From positions 19,904,001 through 19,968,000 of the forward strand of contig OX485809.1 in NCBI GenBank assembly GCA_950295325.1: a stretch of DNA of 64,000 nt. Reading direction: 5' to 3'. Under the pieces are notes generated by a model that was not told where the DNA came from, made no database searches, and saw only the letters and a list, made by a program, of their open reading frames with translations. Position numbers and translations under genes: made by a program. The DNA comes from Polytrichum commune (lineage: Eukaryota; Streptophyta; Polytrichopsida; Polytrichales; Polytrichaceae). Shown one piece after another: positions 17,818 to 27,922 of the stretch; the stretch's first letter is position 1; every line of letters begins with the position of its first letter.

Positions 17818-18330
17818 CATGGGGGGCCATTCACGGTTGGGGTACTACTTTTGGGACAAAGGACTTAAGGACTTTGTCGCATTGATCTTGGTTTTTATCA
17901 TGATTTACTATTATTTGATCAATAAATTTTACATAAATAAGTAGATAGTTCATAAGCTTTATCAAGAAATATTTTTATTATTATTTAATAATGACCCTAA
18001 ACCCTAAACCCTAGGCCACATCAGTGGCATTTTTTTTCTATTTAGGTGTGCATTGGTGGTCAATTATTTCCTGTTATGCATCTTGGTACCTTGGTAAAAG
18101 TGTCATGTGTCCATTCATATAATTGTTTTTGTCCAATTCTAATACTAGACGTTCCTTTTACGTGTGGCCGTGAGTATATGTATATTTGGACATGTTTGGT
18201 GCGACATGTAAAGTTGGGCAATTGCTATTCAATACATATTTGGTTCTATTGGTACACACTTGAACGATGAGTGTGAGGAAAAAATTTGGGATCGTTTCGA
18301 TTGATTCTTGTTGTCCTTTTCATTCCTTGA

Positions 18331-18390
18331 TCCGGGGGGTGCTATCATGTGAGCGGTGAGCAATGAGCGGTAAGTTTTGAGAAGGGAGGG
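18331..18390. repeat. Inner inverted repeat of the 10.1 kb block, left
   Basis: Contains ATGTGAGCGGTGAGCAATGA, a degenerate repeat of the GTGAGC motif. Its reverse complement is matched at 27610-27675 (ACCGCTCACTGCTCACTGCT). Spacing from the outer repeat is about 480 bp here and 210 bp on the right, so one arm has gained or lost sequence. The repeated motif could be a transposase binding array. Confidence 0.6.
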
Positions 18391-18659
18391 TGGAAAAAAT
18401 ATTTGGAATTACACCCAATATTATCCTATAACCGTGGTATTTTGGCATAATTGATTGCATATTTCTCTATAATATTAGAAGTGGGTAGTGCAAACAAAAT
18501 GCAACGAACCTAATGAATTTATTACGATTCAGCTTTCAAAATCAATAACCACAAGATTGGCATGAGAGTTTCATGATGAATCTCAACATTGTTGCTAGAT
18601 TCAACACAACAAATGCAAACACATTTCAAGTATTGAGAAATGAATTGATGGAGGCGTTT

Positions 18660-18674
18660 GGGGGGGGGGGGGGG
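18660..18674 (+). repeat. Poly-G run
   Basis: Fifteen consecutive G residues, the longest G run in the window. A similar run of 13-14 G lies near 62699. Liable to length error in sequencing. Confidence 0.9.
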
Positions 18675-18893
18675 CGGACTAAATTATTTGGGCATATCGT
18701 TTATGAATAAGAGGAATTTGCTCACATAAAATCAGTCTCCACTAGTTGTGGTAATTCAAAAATAATGCAAAGAGTGGCTTCAATTTTATTTTTGTTTTTA
18801 TTGGAATGCCAAATTCAATGTCATTTCACATTTCAAACCAACCATATCCAATCCAATCCAATCCAACATATGGCGGATGGTATTTTCAACTAT

Positions 18894-20950
18894 CTAAATG
18901 CCTCCATTGTCCTCTGATGCCTCTAAATGAAAGAACATCTCCACATTGGAATTAAACTTGCGAGACTTTGGCCGACGTGTAGGTGTTGATGTGGTCACTT
19001 GTGCAAGAGCAATGCTCTCCGCATATACAGGAAGCAACAACGACCTCGGAGGAGATGACAATTGCTCCATCATCTTGCCAACACTGCATTTAGATATACA
19101 CAATGAGGGTTAGTAACTTTGACGATATACAAGTTCACAAATAATCATAAATTCCAATAGGTTGGGCAAAACTCACGTACTCAAACGTGATTTCCTTGCT
19201 ACTTTGCGAGAAGGTTCATCCTCCTCCAATGAAGGTGGTTGTGATGATTGATCAACTACGGGATTTTGAGATGAAAGCTCGCGAAGCGGTTGAAGTATCT
19301 TATTGAAGATTAGATCATCTGCCTCATAAGCAACAAGATGGCGTCCACTTTTACGACATGCGTGGACAGAGGCACCTGAAATGAAAAATAAAAAAATAAA
19401 AACAGAATATGTTTTATAAGCATTATAATGCATTGGATAAAAGAAAGTTTATTGAATCATTAAGGTAGAAAAATTGAATGTTGATGGTAGATATTAAGAT
19501 TGTAAACCCACCGGTAGAAGCTATGACATCAATGACTACCGCTCCAGGCTTACATAAAGCCTCAATAAACATCTGCATTAAGATAGGATGTTTTTCACGA
19601 GCTCCTCGCCAACGCACAAAATCATTCATTAGTTGAGTTTTTTCAGGTGTGTAATTAAAATAAACATCGTCTTCGCCAACACATACACCTTGTTTTTCGA
19701 ACTTAAGATTTTTGTTGAATAATACTTTGACATGTGTATTCTTTTCACGGCAATATAACAAGATTCGGAACTTGCGTGACTGCCACAAACAAACAACATA
19801 CACATATTAGTTTTTTTAAAATTTATTTTGCATAAATCCAAAATCCATTGAAAATGTTGAGAAGAAAAATTGTATTTACTGTGGCAGAAGCATCGATACC
19901 AGAGCACAATTTCATGCCATTTATACCCCACCAATCTTTTAATAAAGTGAAGCCGTAAGCCGTAAGTGATTGGAATCTTTTCTTTGTACAACCTAGATGC
20001 CTCATCAGTAGCAACCACCACCTCTCTCTGTAGATAAGAGTCATAAACCAATAGCAATTACACACTTAACATTCTTAAAATCAAACATAAAAAATGAATA
20101 AAATTTAAATTTGTAACTTATAAACCAAAGTTGCAAACACATCGATCGTCAAAGGGTACCACGTAGTCCTTGATTTTTTTTTCACGCAATTTGCGTAGTC
20201 TTTAGAAGAAATAAAATCTTTAAATTCATCAAGCTTCAAAATGCCTATATTTCGTATGCGATGAAGCTTGTGGGATAAACTGGTTTTCACTTTATCGTTC
20301 TCAGTGCATATGATATGCATACAACAAATAAATCATTAAAAATGAATTTGAAACAAAAAATAAATACCAAATAAAATGTTAGGGTATGATGATTATTACT
20401 GACCAGTTGACATCATTCATAGCATCGAAGAGTACTCCGACCGAGCCTTTTGGATCCAAAAAAATGCAATTCACTGAATAATGCCATCGTTCTTCATCAG
20501 AATGATGGCGTTCAATGTGGCGTAACCACGCCGTCACTCGATGGTTACCCTCCCAAACATAAAACATTTTACCTTTAAATTTATACAAATCTTTGTCCTT
20601 ATCCAATTCTTTCTCACAACGATGATTTGCATGTTGTCAATATTGGTCCCAAGAGCTAACTGTCTCATCCGTAACATCAAGAGAAGTACCATCATTTTTG
20701 GCAATCGACACATACAAAACACGATCTCCTTCCATGTAACCATTGAAAAATTCAGTCTCTAATAATTGAACATTACCCTCAAGGATTGGTTTAACCAATG
20801 GTAAACCACAAGACGACACAATGGAACACAAAATCGCGATTTCGCATATGGGATCGCCCGCAGTTGGTTAATGATAGAATTAAAATCCGTTTTTTTCAGC
20901 CTACGGGCATCATAATCCTTGTCTTCCAAACCCTGAACATTAACATCCAT
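18894..20950 (-). pseudogene. ParB-like / DNA-methylase-like protein, decayed
   Basis: Six exons on the minus strand: 20950-20400, 20299 to about 20112, about 20037-19882, 19779-19512, 19375-19177, 19083-18894. Phases agree at the exon 1-2, 3-4, 4-5 and 5-6 joins; the end of exon 2 is unresolved. Exon 1 encodes TAGDPICEIAIL, NGYMEGDRVLYVS and MFYVWEGNHRVTAW, the last resembling the D-G-N-H-R core of ParB/Srx domains. Exons 4-5 encode KPGAVVIDVIASTG joined to ASVHACRKSGRHLVAYEADD, which fits motif I of N4/N6-type DNA methylases (PG-x-x-V-x-D...TG...E-x-D). No catalytic DPPY/SPPY motif is visible, so methylase activity is doubtful. Lesions: a frameshift in exon 1 near 20870-20880, an in-frame TGA at about 20637, and a 7-bp duplication TTACGGC at about 19952-19965 that shifts exon 3. 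The C-terminus is Ser/Pro/Arg-rich. The domain calls are mine, by motif only. Confidence 0.5.
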
Positions 20951-22499
20951 ATAACAAAGAAAAATAATTAGAAACCCATTGAACTAACTTTGTTGAACTC
21001 ACCAAAACAAAATTGGACAACATGTTCATAATATGCTATGAATTCTAACAATGTACCTCTACTAAACAAAGCAAATCTAGCACATATCAACACGTGACCA
21101 ATTGAGCTTGGAAACACTATGATCAAGTGTGACTATCTCCAAAAACCTCCCTAGTTGAGTTTGAAAAAATAACAGATTGGAGGTCAAGACTTTAGAGAAT
21201 ACTAACAGATCCACTTTAGATAAATCTAGAAAATATACTTGCAACGAATGAAGCAAAACCTAAGATATCAACGTGTAGTCTGTTGGACTAGGAAACCCGA
21301 GGATCGCGACAGACTATGTCCAATTGCCTCCCAGTTGATTTTTCTCAAATTGCAAGTAAAGTTTGAGATTTTTTGAACACTCACGTATGCATTTTTGCTG
21401 AATCTAACAAATATACTTGAAATGAGAAAAAAAAACATGTAACCTGTGGGACTTGTAAACACTAGGATCGTGACACACTAGGATCATTTATATGCAATTA
21501 GTTACAAATGAACCGGTTGAGTTTGAGAAATAACCAGTTGAAGTTGCAGGAAAATTGCCGATCATTTTAGAGGCCGGAATAGTTGATAAAAAAATGATCT
21601 AGGAACACAATATCCACAAGTGCCTTGAGCTATTACACTACCCTCGTCATAATTACAATACAGGTCCTCTTGAGTCATGATAGAGAATTACAAGGAAAAC
21701 TCACCCAGAGACCTACAGGTTTACCACATGAGTTTGTAGATTTACATGAAGCGGACTCATGTACAACTATGAGATATTAGCTTCATAGCCAAGTACAACT
21801 ACCAGGAAGCATCAGTTTGTATTTTGAGATTCTCTTGCAAGGTTAACTACTATTGGTTGTGGCTCTCACTAAATAGAGAGAGATAGAGAGAGAGAGAGGC
21901 AACCCCAGCCCCAAGCTAGCTCCATTGCTCTCTATTTTCAGAGAAACAGAGTTCATCAACGGGATGAGGACCCCATCATGTCGCCATAAAGGAGGGGATT
22001 GGAAAACCATGTGTGAATTTGACTCCAAAATGAAAATTGACAAATTTCTTGAATGTTGTCAATTCATGCGTTAAAATGGTATGCCATAATTTGTTTGCTT
22101 CGCTTATGATAGATTGGTGACTCGAAAACTTTCAGGTTGATTTGTGAGTCATAGAATTGCAGGGAAGTGAAGTGTGCATCACTGCATTGTGCTATATAAT
22201 GGCTCCTTCGCTAGTTGATGAGAAACTAACATTTATGAGTATGAACATAGTTGTGTGAGCTACTTTCAAGTTTTAGGTTGATAAGTATTTAGAATTGCTA
22301 AATCTGAACTCCAAAAAATCAAGGCCAATTTACCTCAAAGAAGTTTCTCAACTATCTATGCTCACCATATCAAGATTTAAGCACTGCCCCCCCTCCCCCC
22401 AGTCCAATTTGACATCAACTGCCAAAAGTCTGAAATGGGCCCAATTTCCATCAACTGACCTTATTGTATTCATCCCCAATCACTGCTGCACACACCCTA

Positions 22500-22600
22500 A
22501 ACCCAAAAACTTGGCAGAATTTTGTCAGGTGTACCTTCGGCAACGAAAGTACACCTGACGGAATTCTGCACTTGCAAAATTCTGCCAAGTTTGTGCAACC
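22500..22600. repeat. Composite hairpin with nested palindrome
   Basis: Outer stem AACTTGGCAGAATTTTG pairs with CAAAATTCTGCCAAGTT. Inside it lies a second palindrome, TCAGGTGTACCTTCG, loop, CGAAAGTACACCTGA. The outer stem alone, without the inner palindrome, occurs at about 23366-23390. Confidence 0.8.
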
Positions 22601-22934
22601 TTCTTTCTTCTTGGCAAAATTTGAAGGCAGGTTGCGTATCGGTTTCTTGACAATGTATTTTAAACTAGCAGTTGCTTTTCATATTGACTTAACTTGCTTT
22701 ATTTTCAAGATATGCTTCTTAACAAAATTTTGGAGCTGTCTGGAGAAAATTTGACAAGAATCTTTTTGCTCAACATAACTGAGAATCAACTAACTGAAGA
22801 TGTCAACTTGTAACCTGTTGGATTTAGGATCACTAGGATCTTGACCAACTAAGCCCCAAAACTTCAAGGGCAATGGTTTAATCAGTATTTCTCTTAATAT
22901 CTCAAGAAATTGCATACAAACGTACCATAAAGAC

Positions 22935-23030
22935 ATAATTGTGCAAGTGCAAAATACTGTCAGGTGTACTTTCGTTGACGAAAGTACACCGGACATAATT
23001 CTACACTTGCAAAATTCTGTCTTTATGTTG
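22935..23030. repeat. Second copy of the nested palindrome
   Basis: TGTCAGGTGTACTTTCG, short loop, CGAAAGTACACCGGACA, flanked by CAAGTGCAAAATACTG and ACACTTGCAAAATTCTG. Nearly the same hairpin as at 22500-22600, so it is a repeated unit and not a chance palindrome. Confidence 0.8.
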
Positions 23031-23199
23031 CTGTAAGTATGGGGGAGGGGGTGATCACCCCCCCCACATCGGGCGTTTGCCTTCATTTACAATTTTACTA
23101 GTGCAGCTCAACACAAACCTAAGGTCATCATTATGTGTATAAATGTAAGAGCCTTCCTTATGATTCTAGCAACTCAAAGGGTACTACTTATTTTCTAGA

Positions 23200-23204
23200 A
23201 ATTC

Positions 23205-23249
<45 letters not shown>

Positions 23250-23272
23250 AACGTCGCTATGAACGCTTGGCT

Positions 23273-23315
<43 letters not shown>

Positions 23316-23344
23316 AGCTTCAAATTCCGAAAGACTAAAGGATC
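23200..23344 (-). rRNA. Fragment of 25S (LSU) rRNA gene
   Basis: Reverse complement reads as the highly conserved peptidyl-transferase region of nuclear LSU rRNA, including AAAGTTACCACAGGGATAAC, CCAAGCGTTCATAGCGACGT and GATGTCGGCTCTTCCTATCA. The match starts at GATCCTTTAG and stops sharply at GAAGCAGAATT. Only about 145 bp of a gene of over 3 kb, with at least one difference from the usual plant sequence (GTCTTTCGG for the usual GACCTTCGG). A dispersed pseudo-fragment, not a functional rRNA gene. Confidence 0.93.
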
Positions 23345-24371
23345 TGCTGCAAAACCCTAAACCCAAAAACTTGGCAGAATTTTGCCAAGTTTTTGGTTTT
23401 TTTGGTTTTTTTGGTTTTTTTTGGTTGTTTTTGAGACAGAAGGCCAACCGCCAACGCCAAAATGAATAAATCAAGAAAAAAGTTTTTGGGTGATCAAGGC
23501 CAGTGAGAAGCATAAGTCTTTCAAACCTGTGCTGAGTGATCTAATGCAGCTAGAATCAAGAAACTTTGTTTTAGTAGCGTTTTATTTATTTATGAGGTAG
23601 ACAACAATCCAGAGTGGAATTTTCTAGGTATTGGTGTTACTTGGCACATCTACCTTGTAATCTGTAAATTTCATAAGTGATGCAGAAATTTTATGTGTTG
23701 AGTGAATTGGGGATGGGTACTGATGGAATTCTCTAGGCTTTGGGCGATTGGCACGGATGTTAGAAGTGGCGTCGTGTTTTTTGGGGGGAGTTTTTGAGAT
23801 TGAAGCTAGTATGTCATAATTTGTGAATATCATTAGCATAGCTAGAATCAAGGAACTGTGTTCTGGTAGCGTTTTTATTTATTTATGAGGTAGACAATAG
23901 GGTTGTTCTGATGCTATCTGATCTTGATGGGGATATCCACAACTATTTGTTTTCAGTTGTACTTTGCCAAAAATGTTCTATCATTATAGCATAAAACCTT
24001 CTTGCTCGATATTATGTCTTTCCGACAATGAAATGAAACTGACCTAATTAGGATTGACTATGCCCAACAATTTCTCGAGCACTGATTAGAGGGGGGAGGG
24101 GGAGGGGGTGATTGGACCTCCATCCCTCAAGTTGACAACATATAACCTATTGGACTTGGAAACACTAGGATCTCATCAACTAAATGTAAAATCGGGGTTT
24201 GGGGGAGAAAACCTGGATTGGAGAGGTTTTGTCCGCTTCTCCATCATCCCCCTCTCTGTTGCTATCCTCCTTGGCATGATGCTTGCCGTCCTCCTCGCCC
24301 TCTCCTCCACTTTCTTCTTCTTCTTCTTCTTCCTCCTCCTTCAATTGACTACCCTTATTGTTATAGAGGAT

Positions 24372-27286
24372 GTGAAGTATTTGCCGTCTTCTTTCAATGG
24401 GGATGTCATTTTCATTTTGCCGCCGGTCAAGACTGGAATTCCAAATGCTTATGGCAAGGCAATGGATGGCATGGACAAGATTTACGATGGGCATGCCTGG
24501 TGCAGAACCAAAACAACAAACATTCAGAATGAATTTGGTTTGACTTTTCGGAGGTCTTCATGAGTTGGTTATCTCCAATGCCTTAACGATTCGTATGAGT
24601 ATCTTTCACGAAATGGTGGAGTTCGTAACTTTACCGAATGGATCGGTATAACACCCACTCCTTTCATGGTTGGTACTGAACCACCAGAGAAATCTAAGGT
24701 TGAATGCAACGTTTGCCATGCCGCTCCTATATGCCTTGATGTTTGCTATGCTAAAATTATATACGTCCATTCACAATTGTCAAGCATGTTGCGTGTTTGT
24801 ATCCACTTGGGTGTTCATAACCACCCTGTATCTACTGGAATGTATCGTGAATCATTAGACATGGCTTATCAGTGTGTGGCAATGAGGTGGCTAAAACTCC
24901 AACCGCAAAGAACTCAGCTATTGTTATGGCTGCCAGTAAACAATTTTTGGTAGATTACCTCCTCAAATCCCTTCTCCTAGGAGAAAAAAACCATCTTCAT
25001 GGAACATCCTTGGAGGTGGTAATGGATAAATTCTCCACTTTGGCTTCCCCTAACTGTAGGAACTTCGTGGCGGGTTCCAAACGTTTCATTCGTAGTGGGA
25101 TGGGTTCCTTGGATAGCATCATGACATTGAAAAACCACTATGGATTTAAATATGTACATGATAGTCGGTTTTCAGGGCAATCCAAAGATAAGGTCTTTGT
25201 GTTCAAGATGTCTGTGGATCTTGCTGGAAGCGGAGTCGATTTGGTGAAACGCATGGAGTATGGAGGAGACATGGAAAATTCGTGGATCATGTTTGACCAT
25301 GTGAAGCGTTTACGAGACTGGACTACAATGGCATGTCATGTCTACGATAACAAACATTGCAAGGTTCTCACAATAGCATGTTGTGATATGCAATCGGAGG
25401 ATGCTCGGGCCTATATCATTTTTTGGGAAAATTTAAATGTTGTCATGTTGGAGAATGGTGTTCCCAATGTCAATTTCAAAGGATTCATGGCGGACAGTGC
25501 CCAAACAAATTGGATTGTTGTGAGGAAGATTTACGGGGATGGTGACCCATCTGTTCCCCTCGAGGGTCGCGAGCGTAGATGTTTTTTTCATTGGTCTGCC
25601 AATTTGGATAAAATAACACAAAAACACATCCGACCTTCATTGCAGTATGAACACAAACAACTTTGTAAAGATTACAAGGATGCCAAAAGTTTGGAGGACG
25701 CCGACATCAAATACCATGTAATACGAGCATGGTGGTTGTCATCAGGGGCAACCACCGAGGAGGGCATGTACAACTTGTCGGAATGGTTGGGGTTTTACCA
25801 TTATCGATATAGACAATGGGAAGGTCACATGCTCATTGTAAGTTTTTCCTATACACAAGTGTCCCTCCTTTATTATTGATGAAATTGTTGTGTCAGTTCA
25901 TTTTTAAACTAAAAATATATTCCCAATATGTATTGCAGGATCTGACTTTGGATCAACGTGCTGAGATGCCAACTTGCAACCTAACAAAAACAATACATAA
26001 CAAGTGGTTGCAACAATCAAGGAGAAAAATGACATGTTTGTACGAGGCAACCGTGGATGACATGATCCGCGCATTCATGCAGATCGCAAATTATCGTTCT
26101 TGGCTTAAAGGGGGCTCTTCAGGGAAAGGGCCAGATCAAGCATCATTGAAGCTCAAAGCTGCAGCACACACCGGTGATCCCAAGCTTCTTGCAGAGGCAA
26201 TGAGGTCATACCCTGGGACAGAGGATCTTAATACAAGGAATTGTGCACTGGAGGGCTCTGAGTTGTTTGGATCAACCAAGAGGAAACTAGACTTACCACC
26301 TGGATCTGAGTATGATTCTTATCGTCCTGACAAAGTGAACTACTCCATCCCTCATCCTAATACAAGGTCAACGAGGGCACGCATAGATGATTCCTTCAAG
26401 CATGATGAGAATGTGGTGTCTCACACCACTAATGTGTTGGAGTCAGAGTGTCATGAATCCCAATGGCATATTTCACGATTGCCTTATCCGTCCAAGAAAG
26501 AGTGTCAAGCATTGTAGGCAAACACTGGACATCCATGTAGGGCTAAAGTTGGGAAAAGTACACATGGCACACTTGCGCCAACATACACATGCATGAAGAA
26601 GGAATACCGTTCCAACAACCACGTTCCAACAAATTTTTGGTTTTGTGCAGATGACATTAATCGATGTGTGAAGGGGAGCAAGAAGAAATGGGTGTTTGAT
26701 TGGCCAAATCTCCCTAAGGTGTGGCCGGTGAAGGTTGGTACAAACCTTACACGGGAGGAGGTGTTTGCATTGGAAGATGTTGGGTTTCAACTGCAACAGA
26801 AAGAGGCATTGTCACCACGTTGTCGATTGAGAACAATGACAAACCTCCCCATCCCTCGTTCACATTTCCGTGTTCCTCCAAACCCAGATGTGCATCCAAA
26901 TACACGGTTTTCCAAGGCAGTTCGACGAAACATGGCAGCACCATTATCAGAGCACGTTACATATGGATGGGTACTATGTGGTTGGTGTGACTCCCATTCC
27001 ATACCTTGGATACGGATGCATCATAACCATAGTTTCCAAAGAGGAGAAGACGTACCTTATCTCCATTGCAAATATCCCGCAATGCACTTGCCCGGACTTT
27101 GCGAAAATGTTGTCTTTGGCAGTGGGAAAGAGGGGTCAGTGGGTTTCATGCAAGCACTTGTATTATGTGTTCAGGTATTTGTGCAAAGTTGACTACACCA
27201 CTGACAAGTTCATTCATGTACCGACATTTAGCTACAATGAGGTGATGCGACTTCTTGAGCTTGCGGGTGTTGCAAAAAAGGTGTAG
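24372..27286 (+). pseudogene. MULE-like transposase with SWIM zinc finger, decayed
   Basis: Two main exons joined at intron 25838-25938 (GT-AG, phase 0). The N-terminal part has a GCM/WRKY-like zinc-binding segment (CNVCHAA... then HLGVHNHPV, about 24711-24830). The middle has a transposase-like core, with SWIMFDHVKRLRDWTT, IACCDMQSEDARAY and FKGFMADSAQTNW supplying candidate catalytic Asp residues. The C-terminal part has a SWIM finger, CTCPDF...VSCKHLYY (about 27080-27160), in the expected CxC...CxH form. Lesions: TGA at 24561-24563 where a Cys is expected, a 1-nt frameshift at about 24881, TAG at 26515-26517, and a frameshift at about 26955. Together these would block a full product of roughly 900 residues. 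Upstream sequence is MITE-derived, so the true start is unclear. It could also be a domesticated FAR1/MULE-type gene, but the stops argue for a dead transposase. Confidence 0.75.
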
Positions 27287-27609
27287 TGGCATAGGGGTGA
27301 AGGGCATGGATGCAATTATTCATCATTTCTACATATATAGAAATATTTGTGTACATCCATATGAAATGTATGTAGTACAAACTGATGGTACAACTAAATA
27401 GATGTTTGTCACAATAAAGTGCTCGACATTTCAATGGCGTACTTGACATGTCAATAAAATGCCTATCACCGTGGATCATCAAACTTCTTGAATTCCATGG
27501 TAATAGGGCCGAGTTCAATATTTTTTTTCCCACAATGTTATTTTCATAATATATAATCCAAATATTTTGGAATATTTTCTTTTCAAATCCTATAATTGGT
27601 CATTTTTTT

Positions 27610-27675
27610 TCTGACTGCTCACATGTTACCGCTCACTGCTCACTGCTCACATGCTAGCTTCCCTCTCCTTGATCC
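27610..27675. repeat. Inner inverted repeat of the 10.1 kb block, right
   Basis: Contains GCTCACATGTTACCGCTCAC and further GCTCAC units. It is inverted relative to 18331-18390 and lies about 330 bp beyond the SWIM gene stop. Confidence 0.6.
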
Positions 27676-27922
27676 TAAGGTGAACAATTAAGACAACACT
27701 CCTGAATGTCCTTTAAGGAATCAAAAGGATATCTTAGATGACCCTATTCCTTCTAAATTAACTTTGTCAGTGTACTCAATATGGAGTATGAAATGTAGGT
27801 ATGATCCAAAATATGCTTCACAATACAAATCTAAGCATACCAAGCATGTGAAGTTATCCAAAAAAGTCCGTTTTCCGTTAGACGGCCAAAAGTAGTACCC
27901 CAACCGTGAATGGCCCCATGGG

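What the first reader, a model, noticed from the sequence alone, without database searches (positions are those of the whole stretch)
17818..27922. Possible 10 kb DNA transposon carrying a ParB/methylase-like gene and a SWIM transposase
A perfect 32-bp inverted repeat with CATGGG just outside each end brackets two divergently transcribed, intron-containing genes. One resembles a MULE transposase. The other joins a ParB-like GNHR segment to a DNA-methylase-like motif. A plant DNA transposon with a methylase-like second gene is not something I know of. A self-encoded DNA-modifying or anti-silencing protein would fit the logic of MuDR/VANDAL second genes, but that is speculation.
Basis: partly seen in the sequence, partly recalled or inferred. 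Interest (0 to 1): 0.9.

Follow-up and report, generated by a model that had tools for sequence, protein, structure and literature searches.

The report
Plant transposon with methylase-like second gene
Two mobile elements sit one inside the other: a small one was split by a larger Mutator-like jumping gene that carries, besides its transposase, a second protein built like bacterial ParB and DNA-methylase enzymes, and relatives of this gene pair are common in this plant-like genome, which suggests a mobile element carrying its own tool to act on DNA.

Summary
The 32-bp inverted repeat and both genes are real, but the repeat is not the end of the gene-bearing element. It belongs to a ~760-bp MITE (4-bp TSD ATGG) that was split by the real element, window 18334-27665 (9,332 bp), which has its own short TIRs, a 10-bp TSD (TCCTTGATCC) and TGAGC repeats. 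Seven of 7 other MITE copies read show the unfilled site. The inner element is Mutator-like: its transposase relative folds like the ISCth4 transposase. Its second gene joins a ParB/sulfiredoxin-fold domain (structure prediction) to a methylase-fold domain (PHROGs E 2.5e-6; hhalign 96.5%). The window copy is broken: internal deletions, stops, frameshifts. In other copies the pair is linked and divergent: 14 of 38 second-gene loci have the transposase within 7 kb, 0 in another arrangement within 12 kb; in a second, abundant lineage 62 of 150 are divergent within 30 kb, 11 otherwise, 77 unpaired. Median dN/dS is 0.39 for both genes. Motif IV lacks its aromatic residue in 12 of 12 copies read, so base methylation is doubtful. 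I favour an element-encoded DNA-acting, anti-silencing or accessory protein. My searches found no print report of this pairing. Function is inferred, not shown.

The parts
17819..17822 (.). 4-bp TSD (ATGG) of the outer MITE, left
   Evidence: 7 of 7 other MITEs read also have a 4-bp TSD
17823..18333 (+). left part of the split MITE (its last 10 bases are the inner element's TSD copy)
   Evidence: joined flanks 95.3-98.7% identical to 7 MITEs
18324..18333 (.). 10-bp TSD TCCTTGATCC of the inner Mutator-like element, left
18334..27665 (.). inner Mutator-like element, 9332 bp, a broken copy
18334..18384 (+). left TIR and TGAGC repeats of the inner element
   Evidence: 3-6 TGAGC in the first ~110 bases of 13 of 13 left ends read; random 110-bp windows mean 0.106
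18894..19084 (-). second gene, last exon (approximate)
19177..19375 (-). second gene, exon with GASVHACRKSGRHLVAYEAD (after motif I)
19507..19779 (-). second gene, exon ending in the SAM-motif region DVIASTG
19885..20027 (-). second gene, fused remnants of two exons; about 1.86 kb (much of exons 3-7, including motif IV) is missing at about 19960 relative to c01
20124..20299 (-). second gene, exon 2 (approximate)
20403..20950 (-). second gene, ParB/sulfiredoxin-fold exon (frame break and stop in this copy)
24357..25839 (+). transposase gene, first remaining exon (GCM-like domain and catalytic core; 5' part missing, frame lesions)
25939..27286 (+). transposase gene, second exon with the CxC...CxH C-terminus (stop and frame break in this copy)
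27615..27665 (-). right TIR and TGAGC repeats of the inner element
27666..27675 (.). 10-bp TSD of the inner element, right
27676..27917 (+). right part of the split MITE with its right TIR (27886-27917)
27918..27921 (.). 4-bp TSD of the outer MITE, right

Best explanation
A two-gene Mutator-like transposon (18334-27665) inserted into a high-copy MITE. The transposase (gene A, + strand) moves the element. The divergent second gene (gene B, - strand) encodes a ParB/sulfiredoxin-fold domain, a long middle region and a methylase-fold domain. Shown: the nested structure, TSDs, linkage of the two genes over many copies, dN/dS below 1 for both, and the fold or profile relationship of both gene B domains. 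Inferred: gene B is an element-encoded DNA-acting helper. Its ParB part would bind, clamp or nick element DNA, perhaps at the TGAGC repeats. Its methylase-fold part, with an altered motif IV, more likely senses SAM or modified DNA or works in a non-canonical way than as an ordinary N6/N4 base methylase. The likeliest benefit is relief from silencing (VANC-like logic, about 45%); next, direct help in transposition (about 30%); ordinary DNA methylation about 20%.
Against: No activity was measured. No Pfam ParB, methylase, MULE or SWIM model reached its cut-off. Foldseek E-values for the ParB model were weak (best 0.075). Four of 7 copies with both ends read lack a TSD. Seven of 15 fetched copies show no substantial gene A in the stretch read (for one of them, c11, gene A lies 20.9 kb away). 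In the second lineage 77 of 150 methylase loci have no listed transposase within 30 kb. No ParB exons were detected in 3 of 3 amplified derivatives or beside the c03b gene, so the ParB part may not be needed in every lineage. The three phage methylases in the hhalign test were picked from gene B's own best weak hits, so that test is somewhat biased.
Confidence: 0.62

Rival explanations
1. One 10-kb transposon bounded by the 32-bp repeat.
For: The repeat is perfect and brackets both genes.
Against: 7 of 7 other loci read with these ends are 746-760-bp MITEs; the window's flanks rejoin into such a MITE exactly at a 10-bp TSD; gene-bearing copies start at the equivalent of 18334, not 17823, in the 12 of 15 where a left end was found.
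Confidence: 0.02
2. Gene B is a working N6-adenine or N4-cytosine DNA methylase that marks the element's own DNA.
For: Profile matches to DNA methylases; SAM-motif region DV(T/I)ASTGG kept in most copies that hold it; a ParB-methylase fusion is known in Bacillus cereus (PMC5512222 passage).
Against: Motif IV lacks the aromatic residue in 12 of 12 copies that hold it: DLPE or DLPK in 9, other variants in c12, c13, c14, where the three phage relatives have DIPY, DLPY and DPDY. The residue that normally stacks on the flipped base (recalled) is thus changed also in a lineage with mostly open frames.
Confidence: 0.2
3. Gene B is a direct transposition helper (nicking, end synapsis or spreading on the ends) rather than an epigenetic factor.
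For: ParB-fold domains include nickases and NTP-dependent enzymes (PMC5512222 passages; ParB fold); ends carry TGAGC repeats.
Against: MULE transposition often needs only the transposase (recalled); no ParB part was detected in 3 of 3 amplified derivatives read, though these could be mobilised in trans.
Confidence: 0.3
4. Gene B is a passively captured host or viral gene fragment with no role.
For: MULEs acquire additional open reading frames (PMC6446971 passages) and capture host sequences (PMC13317346 passage and abstract start).
Against: dN/dS equal to that of the transposase; pairing with gene A also in lineages whose methylase part is only about 39-50% identical; 136 of 150 scored methylase exons of the abundant lineage have no stop.
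Confidence: 0.05

Closest known systems
Mutator-like elements (MULEs), plant MuDR type
   Same: 10-bp TSD, transposase fold close to ISCth4 (IS256 family, recalled) with D-D and CxxH, CxC...CxH C-terminus, GCM-like N-terminal domain, a second gene
   Different: no Pfam MULE match; short TIR with TGAGC repeats; a ParB/methylase-like second gene, which mudrB and VANC are not (recalled; not compared here)
VANDAL elements with VANC (PMC5735166, listing; PMC10398659, passages; PMC13317346, passage)
   Same: MULE with an extra conserved gene; VANC targets short motifs in tandem repeats in noncoding regions
   Different: gene B is ParB/methylase-like; no anti-silencing shown here
Fungal DNA transposons with TET/JBP dioxygenase, and SET histone methyltransferase genes in Phytophthora MuDR families (both from PMC12730594, passages)
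   Same: DNA transposon carrying an enzyme of epigenetic marks, proposed to counter silencing; the SET case is also in MuDR elements
   Different: other enzyme classes, other hosts
Retrotransposons with cytosine methyltransferases in dinoflagellates and charophytes (PMC5890265, listing and abstract start)
   Same: mobile element carrying a DNA methyltransferase
   Different: C5 cytosine enzymes in retrotransposons
Bacterial and phage ParB-methylase fusions (PMC5512222, passage; BFVD match 'DNA methylase' of Mycobacterium phage Vincenzo)
   Same: ParB-fold plus methylase in one protein (for the phage protein inferred from its name and the fold match)
   Different: gene B has a long middle region, introns and an altered motif IV, and sits in a plant-like transposon
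Viral mariner elements with methyltransferases (PMC3627910, passages)
   Same: DNA transposon with methyltransferase gene
   Different: Tc/mariner of viruses, accompanied by an endonuclease

Membership tests
MULE | 8-11 bp target site duplication (PMC6446971) | tested here: met
   10 bp in 3 of 7 copies with both ends read; none in 4 of 7
MULE | transposase with DDE RNase-H-like core of IS256/MULE type | tested here: met
MULE | match to a Pfam MULE or SWIM model | tested here: inconclusive
   no such model among the matches of two window pieces at E up to 1; CxC...CxH seen by eye
MULE | terminal inverted repeats | tested here: met
   23 of 28 positions in the window copy, then TGAGC repeats
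MITE (outer element) | short, no room for the genes, shared TIR, constant-length TSD, many copies | tested here: met
   7 of 7 loci read, 746-760 bp, 4-bp TSD; 40 scored of 858 candidates, the window included
ParB/sulfiredoxin superfamily | ParB/Srx fold | tested here: met
ParB/sulfiredoxin superfamily | CTPase, nickase or kinase activity | not testable with these tools
   needs bench work
amino DNA methyltransferase (N6_N4_Mtase-like) | profile similarity across motifs | tested here: met
   PHROGs 2.5e-6; hhalign 96.5% over 200 columns; Pfam N6_N4_Mtase 0.036, below cut-off
amino DNA methyltransferase (N6_N4_Mtase-like) | motif IV (D/N/S)PP(Y/F/W) or DLPY (consensus recalled; DIPY, DLPY, DPDY in three phage relatives) | tested here: not met
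   12 copies hold the stretch: DLPE in 7, DLPK in 2, ADLSQG c12, ANLPGG c13, ADLLEG c14; no aromatic residue in any
VANDAL/VANC | VANC-family protein, sequence-specific loss of methylation | not tested
   no VANC comparison was run; no functional data

The most novel reading that the evidence does not exclude
A whole, very successful lineage of plant Mutator-like elements evolved with a ParB-plus-methylase-fold second protein whose active site was remodelled, making it a new class of transposon-encoded epigenome editor: a ParB-type clamp loaded on TGAGC end repeats that carries a SAM-binding domain and keeps the elements unsilenced.
Probability: 0.3. Interest if true: 0.88.

Novelty: new variant of a known kind. 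Interest (0 to 1): 0.62.

Why it matters
Few transposons are known to carry proteins that act on the host's epigenetic marks (VANC, TET/JBP, SET and DNMT examples). A prokaryote-type ParB-methylase architecture, kept beside a transposase in many copies of a plant-like genome, would be another independent solution and a ready test case: the open-frame lineage, the end repeats and the altered motif IV all make direct predictions.

Tried and rejected
Considered and dropped: a single 10-kb element (refuted); a non-MULE superfamily suggested by the 4-bp TSD (that TSD belongs to the MITE); gene B as a passenger. The tandem layout of transposase and methylase exons at C6:35.286 Mb first looked like a second architecture; one search shows the divergent layout to be commoner (62 against 8 tandem and 3 convergent), so this is probably nesting or rearrangement.

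Led nowhere: viral-contig scan with P0001 (0 relatives); Pfam on 97 ParB-exon proteins (no ParB model among the 9 families listed); PDB sequence search with P0001 (no meaningful hit); NCBIfam (weak methylase-like hits only). No MULE transposase structure appeared in the fold lists that I ran. The methylase part itself was not folded because I had no admissible continuous sequence. A genome search with the ParB exon as protein did not complete, so how many copies of the abundant lineage keep ParB is unknown.

Literature behind the claim of no print report: searches (PMC open-licence library only; one search failed); passages seen in PMC6446971, PMC3627910, PMC5512222, PMC12730594, PMC13317346, PMC10398659; listing and abstract start only for PMC5735166 and PMC5890265. 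No paper was read whole.

Counts taken from partial lists: one search used 38 distinct gene-B loci of the 42 matches (4 rows that are second pieces of listed loci dropped; 77 candidates, 40 scored) and 40 of the 41 gene-A matches (961 candidates, 40 scored; one second piece dropped). Besides the 14, two gene-B loci have gene A 20.9 and 28.4 kb downstream in the same layout, and one has a gene A 15.6 kb away in another layout. Searches scored 150 of 1193, 1090 and 1490 candidates. One search listed 120 of 274 proteins; alignment A3 used 97 of those 120. In one search the 16 copies are the 15 fetched plus the window, with c03 exons 7-10 left out because they belong to the other lineage. One search used 12 sequences (9 copies, c03b, L045, L047; 11 after its identity filter); copies with too few residues and L046 were left out.
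Full report
1. What was claimed and what is there. The perfect 32-bp inverted repeat is present at 17823-17854 and 27886-27917. The host genome is held as an unnamed 407.8-Mb assembly of 64 contigs; the seven that I fetched from are 42-78 Mb long. Searching it with the left end gave 40 scored matches (of 858 candidates, the window included); the 39 others start at or within about 20 bases of the repeat's first base. All 7 further loci that I read (L002-L008) are 746-760-bp elements with the repeat at both ends and a 4-bp target duplication (TTTG, ACCT, ATCG, GCAT, CACA, AAAG, ACTC). In the window the corresponding duplication is ATGG. So the repeat marks a MITE.

2. The MITE was split. The gene-bearing part occupies 18334-27665. 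Immediately outside lie two copies of TCCTTGATCC (18324-18333, 27666-27675). All 7 MITEs contain this stretch once, uninterrupted, at the matching place, and the window's joined flanks align to them at 95.3-98.7%. The inner element has its own TIRs, matching at 23 of 28 positions, that run into TGAGC repeats: 3-6 units in the first ~110 bases of 13 of 13 left ends read, against a mean of 0.106 in random 110-base windows.

3. Other copies. A DNA search with gene B gave 42 matches, of which 38 are distinct loci. I fetched 15 of them besides the window, c01-c15. A left end was found in 12 of 15; gene A lies downstream in the divergent layout in 8 of 15 (c01, c02, c03, c04, c06, c10, c12, c13). 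Among the 7 copies with both ends read (window, c01, c02, c04, c06, c10, c13), 3 have a perfect 10-bp duplication (window, c01 with one extra G at its left end, c10) and 4 have none, c04 with a rearranged right end. The window copy is a decayed derivative: it lacks about 1.86 kb in the middle of gene B relative to c01, and 1.8-2.4 kb near the 5' side of gene A relative to c01 and c06, with stops and frame breaks in both genes. c01 itself has a frame break in exon 2 and a stop in exon 5 of gene B and 3 stops over 1132 aligned codons of gene A.

6. Linkage and selection. Of 38 gene-B loci, 14 have gene A 2.5-6.5 kb away in the divergent layout and none has it in another arrangement within 12 kb; by chance 0.02 would be expected for the 40 gene-A loci used, 0.5 if all 961 candidates were real. 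Three gene-A loci chosen because no DNA-level gene B was near all carry a diverged gene B (exons 6-9, 30-58% identical by piece); in these three neither the ParB exons nor the first ~150 residues of gene A were detected. In a second lineage, the methylase exon gave 150 scored matches (of 1090 candidates), 136 without a stop, and the transposase end gave 150 (of 1490). Pairing these lists, 62 of 150 methylase loci have the nearest transposase within 30 kb in divergent layout, 8 in tandem, 3 convergent and 77 none; random placement gives a mean of 3.9 in any layout, maximum 10 in 200 trials. Both lists are top slices, so the true linkage is probably higher (inference). In public data, contig lengths 674,632 and 362,076 occur in both the gene-A and the gene-B lists, which suggests, without proof, co-location in another assembly. 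Median dN/dS is 0.39 for gene B (120 pairs, 16 copies) and 0.39 for gene A (36 pairs); for gene B most pairs of old lineages (dS about 0.4 or more) lie at 0.22-0.35 and their ParB exon at 0.09-0.26. As the copies are decaying, the values are probably upper bounds (inference); pairs share history and are not independent.

7. How it may work. Shown: a two-gene mobile element family whose second gene is kept. Inferred: the second protein acts on DNA. ParB-fold domains are described as nucleases and NTPases, and a ParB-methylase fusion from Bacillus cereus with nicking activity (PMC5512222, passages). In the VANDAL MULEs, VANC proteins bind tandem short motifs in noncoding DNA and cause loss of silent marks (PMC10398659, passages). 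The TGAGC repeats and the lost aromatic residue lead me to favour an anti-silencing or accessory role over plain methylation, at about 45%, 30% and 20%.

8. Novelty. Transposons with enzymes of epigenetic marks are known: TET/JBP in fungal DNA transposons and SET histone methyltransferases in Phytophthora MuDR families (PMC12730594, passages), cytosine methyltransferases in retrotransposons (PMC5890265, listing), methyltransferases in viral mariners (PMC3627910, passages). The MULE survey PMC6446971 does not contain the word methyltransferase in its main text. I found no report of a ParB/methylase-like second gene in a MULE in the searches listed under Tried and rejected; the library holds only open-licence papers. 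I call it a new variant of a known kind.

Noticed in passing
window 23150-23289 (- strand): A fragment of eukaryotic large-subunit rRNA lies inside the element between the two genes (Rfam E 1.5e-14); the 23185-23385 stretch matches three places in copy c01 and two in c03, so it looks like part of the element.
   Followed up: partly
window 22499-23400: Several inverted copies of a sequence with CTTGGCAGAATTTTG, including two 50-base arms, 86% complementary and 2 bases apart, at 22926-23027.
   Followed up: no
L045, L046, L047: An amplified derivative, about 90-94% alike among the three over their long matches, with the same ends: the ParB exons and the N-terminal part of the transposase were not detected, and ~228-bp repeats lie in the middle.
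   Followed up: partly
C6:35.286-35.290 Mb (c03 stretch, L037): A second-lineage transposase with long open frames and methylase exons on the same strand, an exception to the commoner divergent layout.
   Followed up: partly
loci, e.g. C1:71118150: Nine methylase-exon loci give exactly the same score (88.5 bits, 39%) with no stops, hinting at very recent amplification; the DNA of the one tried could not be fetched.
   Followed up: no
MITE family of window 17823-27917: A high-copy ~760-bp MITE with 4-bp TSD and a GGGGCCATTCACGG end; its own transposase source was not looked for.
   Followed up: no
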